Assembly: GCA_903862855.1 (NCBI GenBank)
Contig: CAIOZW010000272.1
Span: 1-32,069 of the forward strand
From: an uncultured Acidobacteriota bacterium
Lineage (GTDB): Bacteria > Acidobacteriota > Blastocatellia > RBC074
Length of the DNA stretch: 32,069 bases
Reading direction: 5' to 3'
Notes under the pieces: model-generated
What the model saw: only the letters and a program-made list of their open reading frames with translations
The model's database searches: none
What the model was told of the DNA's origin: nothing
Shown here: one piece after another, positions 13,094 through 32,069 of the stretch
Numbering within the stretch: position 1 is the stretch's first letter
Layout of the letters: the number at the start of each line of letters is the position of its first letter
Program-made: the position numbers and the translations under genes

Positions 13094-13106
13094 CATGGAG
13101 GGGGTA

Positions 13107-14276
13107 ATGATGCCTGACCACCGTTCAGGAACGTACGTCAGCAGCTCGGTCGCGGGTGAAGAGTGTCGGGCATTTATCCCGCCTCCTTTGCCGCCGGTAC
13201 CCCCTCTCAGCCTGACGGCGGAAGACTATGATCTGATGGAGAAGGCCAATCGCGCGTTGGGGAGATTGGACGGAGTCGCGACTCTGTTACCGGATACATC
13301 GCTGTTCATCTACTTCTTTGTCCGCAAGGAGGCCGTGCTCTCCTCGCAGATCGAGGGGACTCAATCGTCGATCACCGATCTGCTGTTGTATGAAAACGCG
13401 GAGGCACCAGGCACGCCGCTGGAAGTCGTAGAGGAGGTCTCAAGCTATGTGGCCGCGTTGCGCTTTGGGTTGCAGCGACTGAATGATGGACTCCCTCTCT
13501 CGCTGCGGCTGCTGCGGGAAGTGCATCAGGTGCTGCTCTCAACGGGACGCGGTAGCTCGAAACTGCCAGGAGAGTTCCGACGATCACAAAACTGGATTGG
13601 TGGTACGCGACCTGGCAACGCTCGTTTTGTTCCTCCCCCACCCGAGAAGCTGATGGAGTGTCTGGGGGATCTCGAAAAGTTTCTGCATGATAACCCGGTA
13701 CGCACTCCGGTGCTGCTTAAAGCCGCACTCTCTCACGTGCAATTTGAGACGATCCATCCGTTTCTGGACGGCAATGGGCGATTGGGCCGTTTGCTGATCA
13801 CACTGCTGCTTTACAGCGAGGGCGCCCTGAGCGAGCCGATTCTCTATCTCAGCCTCTTCTTCAAGCAAAACCGTGACACCTATTACGACCTGCTGCAGCG
13901 CGTTCGCCTGGAGGGTGATTGGGAGTCCTGGGTACGATTCTTCCTGACGGGAGTCCTTGAGACAGCGGAACAGTCGGTGCAGACGGCTAAAGGTATCCGG
14001 CAGCTTTTTGCGGACGATCGGCGCCGAATCCAGACGCTCAATCGACAGGCGGCAACGGCGCTTCTTGTGCACGAATATTTGCAGACTAAACCGGTGACCT
14101 CCATTCAAGCGGCGGCAACGGCGCTGGGTCTGACGCTGCCGACGATCACCTCAGGGCTGACCAATCTCGCCAGCCTTGGCATTGCGCAGGAGCTGACCGG
14201 CAAGCAGCGAAATCGTCTCTTCAGCTATGTCGAATATTTGAAGATACTGGAGAAAGGGACAACGCCACTGAGATAA
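13107..14276 (+). CDS. Fic family protein (predicted AMPylase) with C-terminal winged-helix-like region
   Basis: Fic motif HPFLDGNGRLGR; N-terminal inhibitory-type motif SSQIEGT; C-terminus TSIQAAATALGLTLPTITSGLTNLASLGIAQEL resembles a wHTH. GGAGGGGG precedes ATG 13107/13110; ORF track starts at 13095. Confidence 0.92.
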   Translation: MMPDHRSGTYVSSSVAGEECRAFIPPPLPPVPPLSLTAEDYDLMEKANRALGRLDGVATLLPDTSLFIYFFVRKEAVLSSQIEGTQSSITDLLLYENAEAPGTPLEVVEEVSSYVAALRFGLQRLNDGLPLSLRLLREVHQVLLSTGRGSSKLPGEFRRSQNWIGGTRPGNARFVPPPPEKLMECLGDLEKFLHDNPVRTPVLLKAALSHVQFETIHPFLDGNGRLGRLLITLLLYSEGALSEPILYLSLFFKQNRDTYYDLLQRVRLEGDWESWVRFFLTGVLETAEQSVQTAKGIRQLFADDRRRIQTLNRQAATALLVHEYLQTKPVTSIQAAATALGLTLPTITSGLTNLASLGIAQELTGKQRNRLFSYVEYLKILEKGTTPLR

Positions 14277-14898: not shown

Positions 14899-16011
14899 TC
14901 AGCCGGCAGGGTAGTATTCTGCCAGATTTTCGGCACTGAGGAAGACGTGCTGGATATGGACCATAGGCGGGACGGCTTCACCGGCAAGGATTTTCAGCAC
15001 CAGCGGAATGATCTGTTCTCCATATTTTTCAGGGAAAAAACCAACTGAGCCAATCAGGCAAGTATGTGGGTTAAGCATCTCCGCACGCGAGGCGGGCGTG
15101 GCGGCCTGTCCGGCGATGGCCGTGTTCTGGCTGGTACGGTTCAGTTCGCGACAGATCTGTGCGACGCCGACGGCCGATGGGTCGGTCACGCTGGAGATCA
15201 GAACCGACGAATTGCGGGGAATCCCCGCCAGGACAGTCCGGGCGATGCGCAGACCCTCTTCGATGGTTCCGGTTGAAGAATGGTAGCTGACTCTACTCTC
15301 CGGCAGATCGGGAACCACCTCCTGAATGCCGTGTAGAGCACCAGTCAGTCGGGCTCGCGGCAGTGGACCAGCTTGCGAAAGTTCGAGCAGCAGAACCTGA
15401 TCGATTTTGCCTCCCCAGTGATCCCGTGCGTGTCGGCCCAGAGCGCGACCAGCCAGCAGGCCGGCCCGATAGTTGTCCGCGCCAAAGAAGACCGCTCCCG
15501 GTTGCGGGATATCGATCGCCAGGCAGGGGATGTGCGCTTCAGCAAACTTATGGCCAATCACGGGCGCAACCCGTTCATTCACCTGAAACTCGATGACAAA
15601 ATCTACCCCTTGCCGCACGAAAAGTTCCGCATTATCAAGCGCTGCTACTTCGTCGTTCTCATTATCGGCGACGATCAGTTGTACACCGTGACGTTTGGCT
15701 GCCTCTTCGAGGCCCTGCAAGACATCACGGGAAAATTCCAGACGACCCCACTGCATCGCGAATCCAACCCGGTAGCGTTGGGTCCGGTTGATGCGATGAT
15801 ACTTTTTGGTTCCCGGCTGCCTTCGCACCCACCCTTTATGTTCCAGCGTTTGCAACAAGCGATACGCATAGCTTGGTGAAAGATTCGCGCGCGTGGCAAT
15901 CTCCGTCAGACTCAGCTCATCTTCCTGTCGCTGAAAAGTATCCAGTACATCCAGCGCTTTCATCACTACATTGATGTAAGGCGAGTTCTCGCCATTTATC
16001 CCACTCATCAT
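14899..16011 (-). CDS. IclR-type HTH fused to a type-I periplasmic-binding-protein (sugar-binding-like) domain; transcriptional regulator
   Basis: N-terminus VVMKALDVLDTFQRQEDELSLTEIATRANLSPSYAYRLLQTLEHKGWVRR is IclR-like. C-terminus LEEAAKRHGVQLIVADNENDEVAALDNAELFVRQGVDFVIEF..FFGADNYRAGLLAGRALG is RbsB/LacI-sensor-like. Confidence 0.85.
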   Translation of the reverse strand: MMSGINGENSPYINVVMKALDVLDTFQRQEDELSLTEIATRANLSPSYAYRLLQTLEHKGWVRRQPGTKKYHRINRTQRYRVGFAMQWGRLEFSRDVLQGLEEAAKRHGVQLIVADNENDEVAALDNAELFVRQGVDFVIEFQVNERVAPVIGHKFAEAHIPCLAIDIPQPGAVFFGADNYRAGLLAGRALGRHARDHWGGKIDQVLLLELSQAGPLPRARLTGALHGIQEVVPDLPESRVSYHSSTGTIEEGLRIARTVLAGIPRNSSVLISSVTDPSAVGVAQICRELNRTSQNTAIAGQAATPASRAEMLNPHTCLIGSVGFFPEKYGEQIIPLVLKILAGEAVPPMVHIQHVFLSAENLAEYYPAG

Positions 16012-16069
16012 GATCCTCAGTATGACATCAAACCCTCACAAAGTCATTTTTACTATTTTAGAAACTTTA

Positions 16070-16086
16070 TTTATCTAATTGATAAA
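16070..16086. promoter_or_regulatory. Candidate operator (inverted repeat) in divergent regulator/TBDR promoter region
   Basis: TTTATC-TAATT-GATAAA, perfect 6-bp arms in an AT-rich block 59 nt from the regulator start. Confidence 0.35.
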
Positions 16087-16355
16087 ATTCTCTTGACCAT
16101 CCGTTGGAAGTATGGTTTTTTGAGCAGGCTTTGATAGAAAAGTTGGAGCAAATAGACCGCTTGTCCGGCCACAGGAGCGGTATTCATTACCAAACATCAA
16201 TTTGTAAGTGGCGGAAAAGGGAGTCTCCTGACCGGACTGGGCCGGTGGTGGCAGCGTCGTGCCGGGAGCAGAGATTCGCTCGCTCAGTACCAGTCGGCAA
16301 TGACGACCGGACAGATCGAGGTTCAAGCAGCATAAGCTCAATGGGGGTAATAACT

Positions 16356-19300
16356 ATGCAACGTATGAAAGTTATCAGGATGTGGCCGCTCGGCGGATTG
16401 TTGCTCTGCGCCAGTGTCATTGTGCAGGCACAGACAGTGACGGGTTCGATCAGTGGAACGGTGAGGGATGTCAGTGGAGCATTGATCTCGAATGCCAGCA
16501 TTAGATTGACGCAGAGTGCGACGGGAGTAATTCGTGAAGGAGTGACCAATGAGAAGGGAGACTTCGTTTTTGCCGGTGTTATGAAAGGGGAGTACACGCT
16601 GATCGTGGCGGCACAGGGATTCAAGAACTCTGAGCGGCAAGGGATTGTGTTGAGTGCGGCAGAGTATCTCTCAGTGGGTGAGATCACTCTGGAGGTTGGT
16701 GGGGTAGGCGAAACGGTGACCGTAACGGCACAGACAGAAATGGTGCAGACAGCGAGTGCCGAGCGTTCCGGGACGATCACCAGCGACCAGGTCGATAACC
16801 TTTTGCTGCTCGGACGAAATGTGAAATCTCTCGCCGCTCTCTTGCCTGGGGTCGTTGAAACGACGGAAGAGGAGGGGCTGACACGCAATTTCAATCTGAA
16901 CGTCCAGGGGAATCGCAACAGTACAAACAGCGTCTCGGTCGACGGGATCACACTCAACGCGCTTGGCAATAACAATAATGCCGTGGTCACCGTCAGTCAG
17001 GATGCGGTCGCCGAAGTCAAAGTGCAATTGTCGAACTACCAGGCAGAGTATGGGCGGATGTCAGGTGCGAATATCACGATCATCACCAAATCAGGAACCC
17101 GTCAATTTCACGGTGGTGGTTCGTACTTCAAGCGTCACGAGCAGTTCAACAGTAACAACTTCTTCAGTAACCGCTCAAATCTGAAACGGCCACGGTATCG
17201 TTATAACGTATGGAACTACAATATTGGTGGACCAGTCGTCATCCCAGGCACCAATTTCAACAAGAACCGTGATCAGCTCTTTTTCTTCTTCAATCAGGAG
17301 TGGTGGCCACTCGAAGTGCCTCAGGCGGCACGCCAGATTACCGTTCCCACGGCGCTCGAGCGGGTCGGCGATTTTTCGCAGACGACCGATGTGAATGGCG
17401 CCAAGGTCTACGTTCGCGATCCACTCAAAACCGGGTTGTGTAACGCGACCAGTCAGATGGCCTGTTTCGAAAACAACGTTATTCCGGCCAACCGTCTCGA
17501 CGCCAACGGCCTGTCCCTGCTGAGGGTGATGCCCCTCCCGAACTTCACCGATCTGGCGATTACGGGACGCCGCTATAATTATATCAACGAGACGACCAAC
17601 AATACCTTGCAGCGGGTCGAAACGGTGAAGGTCGACTTTCATCCCAATGCGCAGAACCATATCGCCTTTACTCATTCTGGCAATCTTGATAAGCAGGCCG
17701 GGTACTACAATATTCCGGCGGGTGGGACAACAAATTTTCCGTTCCTGCGCCAGACTTTTATCACTGATGGCAAGGTCTGGTCAGGGAGGTATCAGCGGAT
17801 CTTCTCTCCAACATTGGTAAATGAGTTCACGCTTGGATTTTCCAATCGAGCCGAGATATCAAAATACCCGGCCGATGAGTTCAACAGCCGGGTCAGCCGA
17901 ACCGGGATCGGCTATCGGCTGGGGCAGCTCAATCCCGCGGCGAATCCACTGGGCGTGCTCCCAAACGCGACATTTGGCGGAGTATCACAAGCCGCTACGA
18001 TCAATCTCGAGGGACGATTCCCGTTTTTTGGTTCGCACAAGATCCTGACGATCGCGGACAACGTTACTCTTACGCGTGGTGCTCATACGATAAAGGCTGG
18101 TGTCTATATCGATCGTATCTGGCGCAATGCCAGCAATATCGTGACGTTTAACGGCAGCTTCGATTTTGGGCAGAATGCCAACAATCCATTCAATACGCAA
18201 CACGCCTTTGCCAATGCGGCGGCAGGCTATTTCAACTCCTACAGTGAAGCGACGTCGCGGCCATTCTATCGTTTCCGCGTTAGCAATATTGAGTGGTTTG
18301 CGCAGGACAATTGGAAGGTCAATCGGCGGCTGGTCTTTGATTACGGGATGCGATTTGCGTTGATTGCACCGCTGAATGAAAGAGATGATCGAGTTTCGGC
18401 GTTTCTTCTCAGTAGTTTCAATGCCGCCCAGACGGCGCAGTTGATTACCCCGACCCGGGTCAACAACGTGCGCATTGGTATTGATCCGGTGACCAACGTC
18501 ACTTATCCGGCGGCTTTTATCGGGGCATTGACACCGGGCAGCAATCCGGGCAACGGGATGGTCATGCCGAACACCAGTAACAACCTCCCGCGTCTGTTCA
18601 TTCCCAGTCGCGGGGTGCACCTGGGACCACGTGTCGGGTTTGCCTATGACCTGACCGGACAGGGAAAGACGTCGGTGCGTGGCGGGTTTGGAATGTTTTA
18701 CAACCGGCAGAGCGAGGGCTCGGTGGGCAGCCCCTTTACGGCCTTACCTCCACTGGTCAGGACACCCACCGTGCAATTCGGGACGATGCCGACGCTGCTG
18801 TCGACGACCGGTCTCAACCAGCCACAGGGAGTCAGCGGTCTGGATGGAGTCGGGAAAGTACCAACAGTGATGAACTTCTCCCTCTCGGTACAGCGCAATA
18901 TCGGATTCAAGACGATTGTCGATGTGGGGTACGTCGGCTCGCTTGGGCGCCATCTGTTGTGGTTGCGTGATATCAATGCCGTCCCACTGGGTGCCAATTT
19001 CAATCCGGCCAATCGGGATACTTCACAAGCGGGCACCGTACCACTGCCCGCCAATTTTCTCCGTCCGCTCAGAGGATTTGCGGCGATCAACATTCGTGAG
19101 TTTGCCGGGACATCGAACTACCATTCAATGCAGGTGAAAGTTGATCGGCGGATGAGCAAGAGCCTGCAGTTTGGCGGCGCCTGGACGTGGTCGAAAGCGC
19201 TCAATTACAACAGTGATGATGGGAACAGTGTCACGACACTGGCGCCGATTCGTGTCTATAATTATGGTCTGGCGCCATTCGATCGCACCCACGTCGTGAA

Positions 19301-19841
19301 GATCAACTACCTCTGGACCCTGCCTCAGACGCGCTGGAAAAATCCATTTGCGGTGTATGTTCTCCATGGCTGGCAGATGTCGGGTATTACCAGTTTTGTC
19401 AGTGGGGTCCCGACAGCTGTTTCGTTCACACTCGTCTCGGGCATAGATATTACCGGTTCGGCTTCGATCGCGGCACGTCCGGATGTCATTGCCGATCCGG
19501 TTCTACCCAAAGGCGACCGTACCTTCAGTCGCAACTTCAATACGGTGGCGTTTCGTGCTCCGGCACAGGGAACCCTGGGCACGGCAGCTCCAACCCAGTT
19601 GCGAGGGCCGGGTATCAACAATCACGATATTGCATTCTTCAAGAACTTTCAGTTCCTGGAGAAGCTGAATCTGCAGTTTCGTGGGGAGTTGTATAATGCG
19701 TTCAATCATACGCAATTTTCAGCGTATGATACGGCGGCCCGCTTTGATGCATCTGGTGCACAGATCAATACACGGCTTGGTGAATTCACCTCAGCCCGGC
19801 GGGCACGTGTGATGCAATTTGCCCTGAAGCTACAGTTCTGA
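16356..19841 (+). CDS. TonB-dependent receptor with carboxypeptidase-like regulatory N-domain (Oar-like)
   Basis: Signal peptide MQRMKVIRMWPLGGLLLCASVIVQAQ, then VTGSISGTVRDVSGALISNASIRLTQSATGV, plug-like VSVDGITLNALGNNNNAVVTVSQDAVAEVKVQLSNYQAEYGRMSGANITIITKSGT, and C-terminal FRGELYNAFNHTQFSAYDTAARFD. The ORF-track extension to 16104 is probably untranslated. Confidence 0.93.
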   Translation: MQRMKVIRMWPLGGLLLCASVIVQAQTVTGSISGTVRDVSGALISNASIRLTQSATGVIREGVTNEKGDFVFAGVMKGEYTLIVAAQGFKNSERQGIVLSAAEYLSVGEITLEVGGVGETVTVTAQTEMVQTASAERSGTITSDQVDNLLLLGRNVKSLAALLPGVVETTEEEGLTRNFNLNVQGNRNSTNSVSVDGITLNALGNNNNAVVTVSQDAVAEVKVQLSNYQAEYGRMSGANITIITKSGTRQFHGGGSYFKRHEQFNSNNFFSNRSNLKRPRYRYNVWNYNIGGPVVIPGTNFNKNRDQLFFFFNQEWWPLEVPQAARQITVPTALERVGDFSQTTDVNGAKVYVRDPLKTGLCNATSQMACFENNVIPANRLDANGLSLLRVMPLPNFTDLAITGRRYNYINETTNNTLQRVETVKVDFHPNAQNHIAFTHSGNLDKQAGYYNIPAGGTTNFPFLRQTFITDGKVWSGRYQRIFSPTLVNEFTLGFSNRAEISKYPADEFNSRVSRTGIGYRLGQLNPAANPLGVLPNATFGGVSQAATINLEGRFPFFGSHKILTIADNVTLTRGAHTIKAGVYIDRIWRNASNIVTFNGSFDFGQNANNPFNTQHAFANAAAGYFNSYSEATSRPFYRFRVSNIEWFAQDNWKVNRRLVFDYGMRFALIAPLNERDDRVSAFLLSSFNAAQTAQLITPTRVNNVRIGIDPVTNVTYPAAFIGALTPGSNPGNGMVMPNTSNNLPRLFIPSRGVHLGPRVGFAYDLTGQGKTSVRGGFGMFYNRQSEGSVGSPFTALPPLVRTPTVQFGTMPTLLSTTGLNQPQGVSGLDGVGKVPTVMNFSLSVQRNIGFKTIVDVGYVGSLGRHLLWLRDINAVPLGANFNPANRDTSQAGTVPLPANFLRPLRGFAAINIREFAGTSNYHSMQVKVDRRMSKSLQFGGAWTWSKALNYNSDDGNSVTTLAPIRVYNYGLAPFDRTHVVKINYLWTLPQTRWKNPFAVYVLHGWQMSGITSFVSGVPTAVSFTLVSGIDITGSASIAARPDVIADPVLPKGDRTFSRNFNTVAFRAPAQGTLGTAAPTQLRGPGINNHDIAFFKNFQFLEKLNLQFRGELYNAFNHTQFSAYDTAARFDASGAQINTRLGEFTSARRARVMQFALKLQF

Positions 19842-19972: not shown

Positions 19973-21634
19973 ATGCAAAACATGAAACGGGTCTGCACGG
20001 TATTGATCTCTCTGCAGTTGATCGTTAGTCTCTGCGCGGCCAACCTGGTGGCCCAGTCGGTAAGGTTAAAACCGGAGCAGGCTGTCTACGATCTGGTCAT
20101 CTATGGCGACTCGTCGGGTGCGGTTGTTGCCGCTATCGCGGCAAAACGCGAAGGATTCTCAGTTATCCTGGTCAATCCCACCGGCTTCCTTGGTGGAATG
20201 AGTGCCAGCGGACTGGGGGCGACCGATTTTCTCGGCAAACGGGCTACCTTTGGTGGGCTGGCCTCGGAATTCTACGATAGGATCGCGGCCGCGTACGGTG
20301 CGAAATACATCCGCAGTTTCGAGCCTCACATCGGCCGAGAGGTGTTCGAGAAGATGATTGGCAGTGCGGGAGTGCCAGTCGTTTTCAATGAGAAATTGAA
20401 TCGATCTCTCGGCAAAGGCGTGAAGATGCGAGGGCGCCGTATCGAGTCGATCACTATGCTAAGTGGCAGAACCTATCGTGGCCGGATGTTCATCGATGCA
20501 ACCTATGTCGGAGATCTGATGGCCGCTGCCGGTGTCAGTTACACTGTCGGTCGTGAACCTGAGAGCCGGTACGGTGAAAACCTCGCTGGTGTACGCCGCG
20601 GTGACACAAAACCACGGGTCCATTACACTCAGGGCGACAAGGATCATTTCGTTCGTGATGTCGATCCATATATCAAGTCTGGCGATCCACGCAGCGGCCG
20701 ACTGCCCTATGTATTTCAGATCAACAATCTGACCAACGGATTGGGTGACCGGAAAATTCAGGCCTACAACTATCGTGTCTGCCTGACCTCGGATCCGCGG
20801 CTGCGCATCCCGCTCGAAAAGCCGAAGGGCTATCGGGCGATTGATCATGAACTGCTGCTGCGCAACTTTGAGGCGGGTGATGAGCGACTGCCAGCTCTCA
20901 TTGAACCGCTGGCTGGCACGGGTTCGAAGGTGGACTGGAACAACATGCACGCCATAGGCACCGACCTGCCCGGAGCAAATTGGGAATATCCGGAGGCCGG
21001 TTACGCGAAGCGTCGCCTCATCGAAAAAGAGCATGAAATATATATCCGTGGACTGTTGTGGACCCTCGGCAATAGTCCACGGGTGCCGACGGCGATTCGG
21101 CAGAAGGTTGCGGCTTATGGATTAGCCCGCGATGAGTTCACTGATAACGGTGGATGGCCCTGGATGATCTATATACGTGAAGCCCGTCGGATGATAACCG
21201 ATTATGTGATGACGCAGCAGGATTGTGAAGGCAGACGTGTCGCGCCGGATCCGGTAGGCCTCGGATCATTTGGCATGGATTCCCACGTCGTGCAGCATTT
21301 TGTCACGGAGAGGGGGTATGTCCTGAGTGATGGGGTCATCTGGCGAGTGCCCCCCCGGCCCTACGGTATCTCTTACCGTTCGATCATTCCGCGCCAGGGG
21401 GAATGCGAAAATCTCCTCTCGCCTATCTGTATCTCGGCCTCGCACGTTGCTCACGGTTCAATACGGATGGAACCGGTGTTTATGACCCTTTCACAGAGCG
21501 CGGCGATTGCGGCCGGTCTGGCAATTGAAAAGAATACCAGCGTCCAGCAGGTCGACTATGTGCTCCTGCGTGAGCGCCTGCTGGCGGCACAACAGATTCT
21601 GGCTCCACCAGCGGGCACAACCTCTGGAAGATGA
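19973..21634 (+). CDS. Exported FAD-dependent oxidoreductase (FAD_oxidored / PF12831-like)
   Basis: Signal-like MQNMKRVCTVLISLQLIVSLCAANLVAQ; dinucleotide-binding YDLVIYGDSSGAVVAAIAAKREGFSVILVNPTGFLGGMSASGLGATDF; GRMFIDATYVGDLMAAAGVSYTVGRE. Confidence 0.88.
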   Translation: MQNMKRVCTVLISLQLIVSLCAANLVAQSVRLKPEQAVYDLVIYGDSSGAVVAAIAAKREGFSVILVNPTGFLGGMSASGLGATDFLGKRATFGGLASEFYDRIAAAYGAKYIRSFEPHIGREVFEKMIGSAGVPVVFNEKLNRSLGKGVKMRGRRIESITMLSGRTYRGRMFIDATYVGDLMAAAGVSYTVGREPESRYGENLAGVRRGDTKPRVHYTQGDKDHFVRDVDPYIKSGDPRSGRLPYVFQINNLTNGLGDRKIQAYNYRVCLTSDPRLRIPLEKPKGYRAIDHELLLRNFEAGDERLPALIEPLAGTGSKVDWNNMHAIGTDLPGANWEYPEAGYAKRRLIEKEHEIYIRGLLWTLGNSPRVPTAIRQKVAAYGLARDEFTDNGGWPWMIYIREARRMITDYVMTQQDCEGRRVAPDPVGLGSFGMDSHVVQHFVTERGYVLSDGVIWRVPPRPYGISYRSIIPRQGECENLLSPICISASHVAHGSIRMEPVFMTLSQSAAIAAGLAIEKNTSVQQVDYVLLRERLLAAQQILAPPAGTTSGR

Positions 21635-29489: not shown

Positions 29490-32069
29490 ATGATGAAGAC
29501 CCGCGTCAAATTTACAGATTCGATGAAAGATTGGCGAATCGGTGCAACCCTGTTGACCGTTCTGATCTTGTTGATCGGTATTGACTGGCATCACAGCCAT
29601 GCGCAGCAGGTAGTCGCTCCAAAGACGGAAGCCAACGATCCGCTGAAGGGGCTGCAGTACCGGCACATCGGACCATTCCGCGGTGGGCGTTCGGTGGCTG
29701 TCGCCGGAGTTCCCACGCAACCGCTGGTCTACTATTTCGGGGCGACTGGTGGTGGAGTCTGGAAGACGACCGATGGCGGGGTCAACTGGGAGTCGGTCTC
29801 CGATGGACAGCCATTTGGAACGGGATCGGTCGGCGCCGTTGAGGTCAGCCAGTCCGATCCGAACGTCGTTTATGTGGGAATGGGAGAGACGTCGATTCGG
29901 GGCAATGTCTCACACGGTGATGGTGTCTACAAGTCCCTCGATGCCGGCAAGACCTGGAGACGGCTTGGTCTCGAAGATACCCGCCACATCGGGAGGATCC
30001 GCATCCATCCCCGCAACCCGGAGGTCGCCTATGTGGCGGCGCTGGGCCACCTCTTCGGGTCGAATGATCAGCGTGGAGTCTACCGGACAAAGGATGGCGG
30101 AAAGACGTGGGAGCGCGTACTCTTCAAGAGCAACAAGGCGGGGGCGATCGATCTGGTCATCGACCCGACCAACCCAAACAATCTCTATGCGGCGATCTGG
30201 GAGGCGAAGCGCACCCCGTACAGCCTCGAGAGTGGTGGGCCGGATAGTGGCATCTGGAAGTCGACCGATGGTGGAGACACCTGGACCGACATTTCGCGGC
30301 GACCCGGTTTGCCGAAGGGGCTGCTCGGTCGAATTGGAATCACCGTCTCCGGAGCGAACGGGGACCGGCTCTGGGCGATCGTCGAGGCCGATGACGGGGG
30401 CGTCTTTCGCTCCGACAATGGTGGCGAAAACTGGATGCGCGTCAATGATGGGCGCAACCTGCGGCAGCGTGCCTGGTACTACAGCCACATCTATGCCGAT
30501 CCAAAGAGTGCCGATACGCTCTATGTTCTCAATGTCGGATTCTACAAATCGGTCGATGGCGGGCGAACTTATACCACCGTCAGCGTTCCGCACAGCGACA
30601 ATCACGATCTCTGGATCGATCCAGCCAATCCGTTGCGGATGATCAATGCCAATGATGGTGGCGCCAATGTGACGACCGATGGTGGTCGCAACTGGAGCGA
30701 ACAGGATCAGCCGACGGCCCAGTTCTACCGGGTCGCGCTTGATAATGATTTCCCATACCACATATATGGTGCGCAGCAGGACAATTCGACGGTCAGGATT
30801 GCGAGCCGGACGACCGGTTTCGGGATTACTATCCGCGACTGGGAAGAGACGGCAGGCAGCGAGTCAGGCTGGGTCCAGCCGCATCCGAAGGATTCGAATA
30901 TCGTCTTTGGTGGAAACTACGGTGGCTACCTGACGCGACTCGACCATCGAACCGGGCAGGAACGCGACATCAATGTCTGGCCCGACAATCCGATGGGCTG
31001 GGGAGCCGAGGGGATGAGATACCGCTTTCAGTGGAACTTCCCGATCCTCTTCTCGCCGCATGATGCGAATGTTCTCTACACGGCTGGCAATCGACTCTTC
31101 AAGACGACCAATGAGGGGCAGACGTGGGTGCCGATCAGCCTCGATCTGACGCGCAATGACAAGACGAAGCTTGGCCCCTCGGGTGGACCGATCACCAAGG
31201 ACAATACCAGCGTCGAGTACTACTGCACGATCTTCACCGTGGCCGAGTCACCGGTTCAGCAGGGAGTCATCTGGGCTGGCTCCGATGATGGCCTCGTCCA
31301 TGTCACCCGCGATGGCGGAGCCAAATGGGAGAAGGTCTCCGACAACATCAAGGGATTACCGGAGTGGATCCAGATCAACTCGATCGAGGCGTCGCCCTTA
31401 GACGCCGGCACCGCCTATGTCGCGGCGACCATGTACAAGTCCGACGATAACCGCCCCTATCTCTATAAGACGAACGACTTTGGCAAGTCGTGGAAGAAGA
31501 TCGTCAATGGCATTCCCGAGACGGCCTTTACGCGCGTCATTCGCGAGGATCCGCACCGGCGTGGGCTGCTCTATGCCGGGACGGAGACCGGGATGTACGT
31601 CTCCTTCAATGATGGTGAGAACTGGCAGTCACTCCAGCTCAACCTGCCGGTCGTACCGATCACCGATCTTGCAATTCACAAGCGCGAGAAGGATCTGGTG
31701 GTGGCGACGCAGGGGCGCAGCTTCTGGATTCTCGATGACCTGACAGTGCTCCACCAGTGGCAGGCGGGGCTGGCCCAGTCCCCACTCCACCTCTTCAAGC
31801 CGGAGGAGGCGATTCGGATGCCGGGTGGCGGATTCCGTTCGCGGGGCGGAGTGACCGTCGGCCAGAACCATCCTGCCGGGGCGGCGATCTGGTATCACCT
31901 CAAGGAGAAGCCGAAGGGTGAGTTGACAATGGAGATTCTCGATAGCAAAGGCCAGTCGGTTCGCAAATTCACGAGCCGTGCCGCGGCGGGTGATGCTGCC
32001 CCCGCTGGTGGCGGTGAAGAGGGTGGTGGACGCGCCGGTGGTGGTACACCGCGCCTTGCGGCCGAGAAG
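29490..32069 (+). CDS. VPS10/sortilin-like BNR-repeat exported protein (3' truncated by window)
   Basis: ATG 29490 (or 29493) after GGAGAGG; open frame of 860 codons to the window end. Signal-like segment [25 protein letters not shown]; repeated [52 protein letters not shown] (Asp-box/BNR motifs). Missing from the ORF track because no stop is in the window. Confidence 0.93.

What the first reader, a model, noticed from the sequence alone, without database searches (positions are those of the whole stretch)
14899..16011. Non-canonical regulator: IclR-type HTH fused to a periplasmic-binding-protein sensor
LacI-family regulators pair a LacI HTH with this sensor fold, and IclR regulators pair an IclR HTH with a GAF-like effector domain. 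This protein mixes the IclR-like HTH (LSLTEIATRANLSPSYAYRLLQTLEHKGWVRR) with a sugar-binding-protein-like sensor. It may represent a less-described hybrid regulator class for carbohydrate uptake loci.
Basis: partly seen in the sequence, partly recalled or inferred. Interest (0 to 1): 0.6.

Follow-up and report, generated by a model that had tools for sequence, protein, structure and literature searches.

The report
Sugar-sensing IclR–binding-protein hybrid regulator
This gene makes a DNA-binding switch whose sensor half was borrowed from a sugar-uptake binding protein. The same fusion is widespread in Acidobacteriota, usually beside genes for using plant sugars, so it is a real but modest new variant of a known regulator design (comparable to AraR).

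Summary
ORF 14899-16011(-), 370 aa, has an IclR winged HTH (aa 16-66, Pfam E=3e-17) and a sugar-binding-protein sensor (Peripla_BP_4, aa 83-345, E=1e-18), with no signal peptide and no IclR effector domain. It is not an artefact: all 74 full-length homologs tested carry both domains. The architecture occurs in 44 of 396 sampled Acidobacteriota genomes, but in only 4 of 162 genomes of the window's own class. The sensor's nearest secreted kin are ABC-transporter sugar-binding proteins of Chloroflexota and Rhizobium/Acidisoma. In a tree the IclR fusions form one group, with the window and its 57%-identical relative as the deepest branch. Homologs sit beside L-rhamnose/L-arabinose genes (RhaT, GH78, GH106, GH127, RhaEW-like aldolase) and TonB-dependent receptors. 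One clade has a conserved 17-bp operator, ATTCCG-N5-CGGAAT, next to the regulator gene. The window has a palindrome of the same shape (16070-16086) between the regulator and a divergent TonB-dependent receptor. Best reading: a sugar-responsive regulator of that receptor, probably a repressor. Ligand and direction of control are inferred. Novelty: new variant of a known kind (AraR is the precedent).

The parts
14899..16011 (-). IclR-HTH / Peripla_BP_4 hybrid transcription regulator, 370 aa
15814..15966 (-). HTH_IclR winged helix-turn-helix, aa 16-66
   Evidence: Pfam PF09339 E 3.3e-17; PDB 1mkm IclR aa 12-71
14977..15765 (-). Sugar-binding-protein (type I PBP) sensor, aa 83-345; R221 and D277 align with R141 and D215 of ribose-binding protein RbsB
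   Evidence: Pfam PF13407 E 1.4e-18; Foldseek top hits are sugar SBPs; alignment; R221 and D277 invariant in 74 homologs
16070..16086 (.). Candidate operator TTTATC-TAATT-GATAAA, a 6-N5-6 palindrome 58 bp upstream of the regulator ATG and 269 bp upstream of the TBDR ATG; overlaps a weak promoter-like match (16059-16088, +)
   Evidence: Not significant alone (about a third of shuffles give an equally good palindrome); same geometry as the conserved operator of relatives
16356..19841 (+). Divergent TonB-dependent-receptor-like outer-membrane protein (CarboxypepD_reg + OMP_b-brl_4), likely target. The listed TTG start at 16104 is probably too early; ATG 16356 follows a G-rich RBS and precedes a signal-like sequence
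   Evidence: sequence
19973..21634 (+). FAD-dependent oxidoreductase (PF12831), same strand, about 130 bp after the TBDR; possible operon partner

Best explanation
A cytoplasmic one-component regulator. An IclR-type winged HTH binds a palindromic operator in the 344-bp gap between its own gene and the divergent TonB-dependent receptor gene. The C-terminal sensor, related to ABC-transporter sugar-binding proteins, closes on a mono- or small oligosaccharide (L-rhamnose/L-arabinose-type in the family; the exact ligand here is unknown). Binding changes the DNA-bound form and so switches the receptor gene, and probably the regulator gene, on or off. Shown by computation: the two domains, the conserved fusion, the kinship of the sensor, the family's gene neighbours, and a conserved operator in one clade. 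Inferred: operator use at this locus, the target gene, the ligand, dimerisation, and the sign of control (repressor favoured because the palindrome overlaps a weak promoter-like match).
For: Domains and fold. Both domains in 74/74 homologs. No signal peptide; the HTH begins near residue 11. Ligand-contacting R and D of ribose-binding protein kept as R221 and D277. Sensor groups with secreted sugar-binding proteins; three clean groups, IclR fusions one side of a branch (support 98), window+L005 deepest. The closest alphaproteobacterial SBP lies in an L-rhamnonate dehydratase operon. Family neighbours: RhaT, GH78, GH106, GH127, RhaEW-like aldolase, TBDR. De novo palindrome ATTCC-N7-GGAAT upstream of 16 regulators against at most 3 in 30 shuffled sets. 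In 8 whole genomes 6 of 9 exact ATTCCG-N5-CGGAAT sites lie within 170 bp of an IclR-PBP gene, one directly before GH127. Divergent TBDR in both the window and L005.
Against: The window's palindrome is not significant alone and has no convincing second site in the genome. The nearest homologs of the window's TBDR (57%, 51%) have no IclR-PBP within the 1.5 kb flanks examined, and L005's TBDR is of a different type, so the pairing is not an inherited unit. TBDRs are abundant in these genomes (about 100 first-look candidates). No sugar-catabolic gene adjoins this copy.
Confidence: 0.68

Rival explanations
1. The protein regulates catabolic genes elsewhere on the chromosome, and the divergent TBDR is only an accidental neighbour.
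For: Close homologs of the TBDR stand without the regulator; no sugar genes adjoin; TBDRs are abundant.
Against: The palindrome in the shared intergenic region has no convincing second copy in the genome. TBDRs are immediate neighbours of many homologs (16 at +1, 8 at -1).
Confidence: 0.2
2. It is an activator, or a dual regulator, rather than a repressor; IclR-family members include both (established knowledge).
For: IclR-family HTH; the site lies 269 bp upstream of the TBDR ATG, and the true promoter is unmapped.
Against: The palindrome overlaps a promoter-like match, but 0.7 such matches are expected by chance.
Confidence: 0.3
3. It is an artefact: a chance frame-fusion or chimeric contig of an IclR gene and a sugar-binding-protein gene in a draft assembly.
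For: The window comes from a draft assembly of 517 contigs.
Against: Same fusion in 74 homologs, including isolate genomes of Edaphobacter modestus and Bryocella elongata.
Confidence: 0.01

Closest known systems
AraR of Bacillus subtilis (GntR HTH + GalR/LacI-type sugar sensor; PMC4218819)
   Same: One-component regulator joining a winged HTH of one family to a periplasmic-binding-protein-type sugar sensor
   Different: HTH is IclR, not GntR; sensor matches the transporter-type model (Peripla_BP_4) better than the LacI-type model
IclR family (IclR, KdgR, PcaU)
   Same: N-terminal IclR winged HTH
   Different: No IclR effector (GAF-like) domain; a sugar-binding-protein fold instead
LacI/GalR family
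   Same: Same type I PBP sensor fold in the cytoplasm
   Different: Winged IclR HTH instead of LacI HTH and hinge helix
DeoR + DeoRC + Peripla_BP_4 proteins of Chloroflexota (L079, L084, L082) beside sugar ABC transporters
   Same: Same sensor subfamily used in a regulator
   Different: DeoR HTH and DeoRC domain; separate group in the tree
Known L-rhamnose regulators RhaR/RhaS/RhmR (AraC, DeoR, LacI types; PMC3870299)
   Same: Many homologs sit by L-rhamnose genes
   Different: None of the types reported in the passages read is IclR; that survey does not mention Acidobacteria

Membership tests
IclR family | IclR-type winged HTH | tested here: met
   PF09339 E 3.3e-17; 74/74 homologs
IclR family | C-terminal IclR effector domain (PF01614) | tested here: not met
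   Not among the Pfam matches shown; C-terminus is Peripla_BP_4; no NCBIfam IclR model reaches its cut-off
LacI/GalR family | LacI-type HTH | tested here: not met
   No LacI HTH match shown
LacI/GalR family | Type I PBP sugar sensor | tested here: met
   Peripla_BP_4 1.4e-18; Peripla_BP_1 only 5.5e-4; fold
AraR-like (GntR + PBP) | GntR HTH | tested here: not met
   No GntR HTH match shown
ABC-transporter sugar-binding protein (CUT2) | Signal peptide/lipobox and adjacent ABC transporter genes | tested here: not met
   HTH at the N-terminus; no transporter genes among the window genes scanned; Chloroflexota relatives do have both
IclR-PBP group defined here | IclR HTH + this PBP subfamily, one group in the sensor tree | tested here: met
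IclR-PBP group defined here | 17-bp 6-N5-6 palindromic operator by the regulator gene | tested here: inconclusive
   Strong in the GH127-linked clade; at the window same geometry but not significant alone
IclR-PBP group defined here | Sugar-dependent DNA binding | not testable with these tools
   Needs bench work

The most novel reading that the evidence does not exclude
Acidobacteriota evolved their own counterpart of LacI: a transporter sugar-binding protein was captured once by an IclR HTH (and separately by a DeoR regulator in Chloroflexota). The result spread into a major regulator family for L-rhamnose/L-arabinose-rich plant polysaccharides and the TonB receptors that import them.
Probability: 0.5. 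Interest if true: 0.55.

Novelty: new variant of a known kind. Interest (0 to 1): 0.4.

Why it matters
It would give a regulator family, with a predicted operator, for how Acidobacteriota (abundant in soil) control use of plant polysaccharides. It would also be a clear case of a transport protein's sensor being reused in transcription factors with different DNA-binding domains, and could supply new sugar-responsive switches.

Tried and rejected
Artefact/chimera: rejected by 74 homologs. Direct similarity of the window and L005 intergenic regions: no better than shuffles (195 of 500 as good). Inherited TBDR-regulator pair: rejected, since close TBDR homologs lack the regulator in the flanks examined. 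Further operator copies in the genome: only one other match, with 1 mismatch, and the reversed control gives about as many. The window palindrome as stand-alone evidence: not significant. Rooting on E. coli RbsB/YtfQ/LacI: long branches made it unreliable, so the tree was rebuilt without them and without three other long-branch rows. Literature for the architecture: no relevant hits.

Full report
Observation. The minus-strand ORF 14899-16011 encodes 370 aa. Pfam finds HTH_IclR at aa 16-66 (3.3e-17) and Peripla_BP_4 at aa 83-345 (1.4e-18), both far above their cut-offs; no LacI or GntR HTH and no IclR effector domain are among the 25 families shown. NCBIfam matches IclR-type regulators mainly over the HTH, far below their cut-offs. 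By sequence the PDB gives IclR 1mkm for aa 12-71 and sugar-binding proteins for the rest. An AlphaFold2 model from 74 homologs has mean pLDDT 90.8 and pTM 0.75. Its Foldseek matches are transporter sugar-binding proteins first (3l49, 2ioy, GanP), with LacI-family structures lower down.

How common it is. The nearest relatives are one at 57-58% and many near 40% identity. A scan of one genome per species gave 80 kept loci (of 154), mostly Acidobacteriota (Bryobacteraceae, Acidobacteriaceae, Solibacteraceae, Vicinamibacteria, group 6), some from cultured strains. At E<=1e-30 a profile match occurs in 44 of 396 phylum genomes, but in only 4 of 162 genomes of the window's own class. All 74 aligned members carry both domains. 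The genome holding the window has a single copy.

Origin of the sensor. The closest non-IclR relatives are secreted sugar-binding proteins of Chloroflexota with CUT2-type permease and ATPase genes (L072, L078, L082) and of Rhizobium/Acidisoma plasmids; the Acidisoma one lies in an operon with L-rhamnonate dehydratase. In Chloroflexota the same sensor is also fused to a complete DeoR regulator (HTH_DeoR + DeoRC + Peripla_BP_4). A tree of the sensor domain separates IclR fusions, DeoR fusions and secreted proteins cleanly (2 changes, the least possible). Rooted on the secreted proteins, the window and L005 are the deepest IclR-fusion branch. R221 and D277 of the window align with R141 and D215 of E. 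coli RbsB (ligand contacts in ribose-binding protein, from established knowledge) and are invariant across the family.

Neighbourhood. In the window the regulator diverges from a CarboxypepD_reg/OMP_b-brl_4 outer-membrane receptor (ATG 16356), followed by an FAD oxidoreductase. L005 also has a divergent receptor of this superfamily. Across the family, TonB-type receptors occur in 36 of 80 loci, with 24 in the immediately adjacent position. RhaT is at -1 in 7 loci, GH127 at +1 in 12, and GH78, GH106 and RhaEW-like aldolase-dehydrogenase genes recur. These point to L-rhamnose and L-arabinose from plant polysaccharides for the family. The window's own neighbours do not name a sugar.

Operator. 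De novo counting of inverted arms upstream of 74 regulators finds ATTCC-N7-GGAAT in 16 loci; the most frequent arm pair in each of 30 shuffled sets reached 2-3. The centre varies while the arms stay constant, and a second copy often lies just after the regulator gene, before GH127. In eight whole genomes there are 9 exact ATTCCG-N5-CGGAAT sites, and 6 lie within 170 bp of an IclR-PBP gene. Some of these genomes overlap the discovery set; G406 (regulator 85% identical to its nearest in the set) is a fresh one. A rhamnose-linked clade shows GTTTTG-N5-CAAAAC in 5 loci, and 6-N5-6 palindromes are enriched in the remaining 51 loci (17 observed, 4.3 expected), although spacers of 1 and 3 are enriched too. 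The window's best upstream palindrome, TTTATC-TAATT-GATAAA at 16070-16086, has this geometry, overlaps a weak promoter-like match, and is the only exact match to the searched pattern in the genome. By itself it is not significant.

Mechanism. The favoured reading is a cytoplasmic sugar-responsive regulator acting on the shared intergenic region. Domain content, family conservation and the operator of relatives are shown. Target, ligand and sign at this locus are inferred.

Known or new. It fails the IclR definition on the sensor and the LacI definition on the HTH. AraR (GntR HTH + PBP sensor; PMC4218819) is the conceptual precedent. The 2013 rhamnose-regulon survey describes AraC, DeoR and LacI types and does not mention Acidobacteria (PMC3870299). 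No held paper contains both domain names. The literature search covers open-licence papers only.

Noticed in passing
L079:7188-8882, L084:4817-6502, L082:383-2152: Chloroflexota DeoR-HTH + DeoRC + Peripla_BP_4 three-domain regulators beside an ABC transporter whose secreted binding protein is a relative of the fused sensor
   Followed up: partly
L125 (G406:C1:420000-435000): Predicted ATTCCG-N5-CGGAAT regulon: sites before the IclR-PBP gene and before GH127, in a cluster with a sugar-acid kinase, MFS transporter and GH42
   Followed up: partly
L157 (G000:C356:1037-4549): A second copy of the window's TonB-type receptor (44% identical) in the same genome, without an IclR-PBP beside it
   Followed up: no
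window 13095-14276: Fic/DOC family protein next to the regulator on the other side
   Followed up: no
window 29490-32069: Open-ended ORF with repeated 'DGGxxW'-like motifs typical of VPS10/sortilin-like beta-propeller proteins
   Followed up: no
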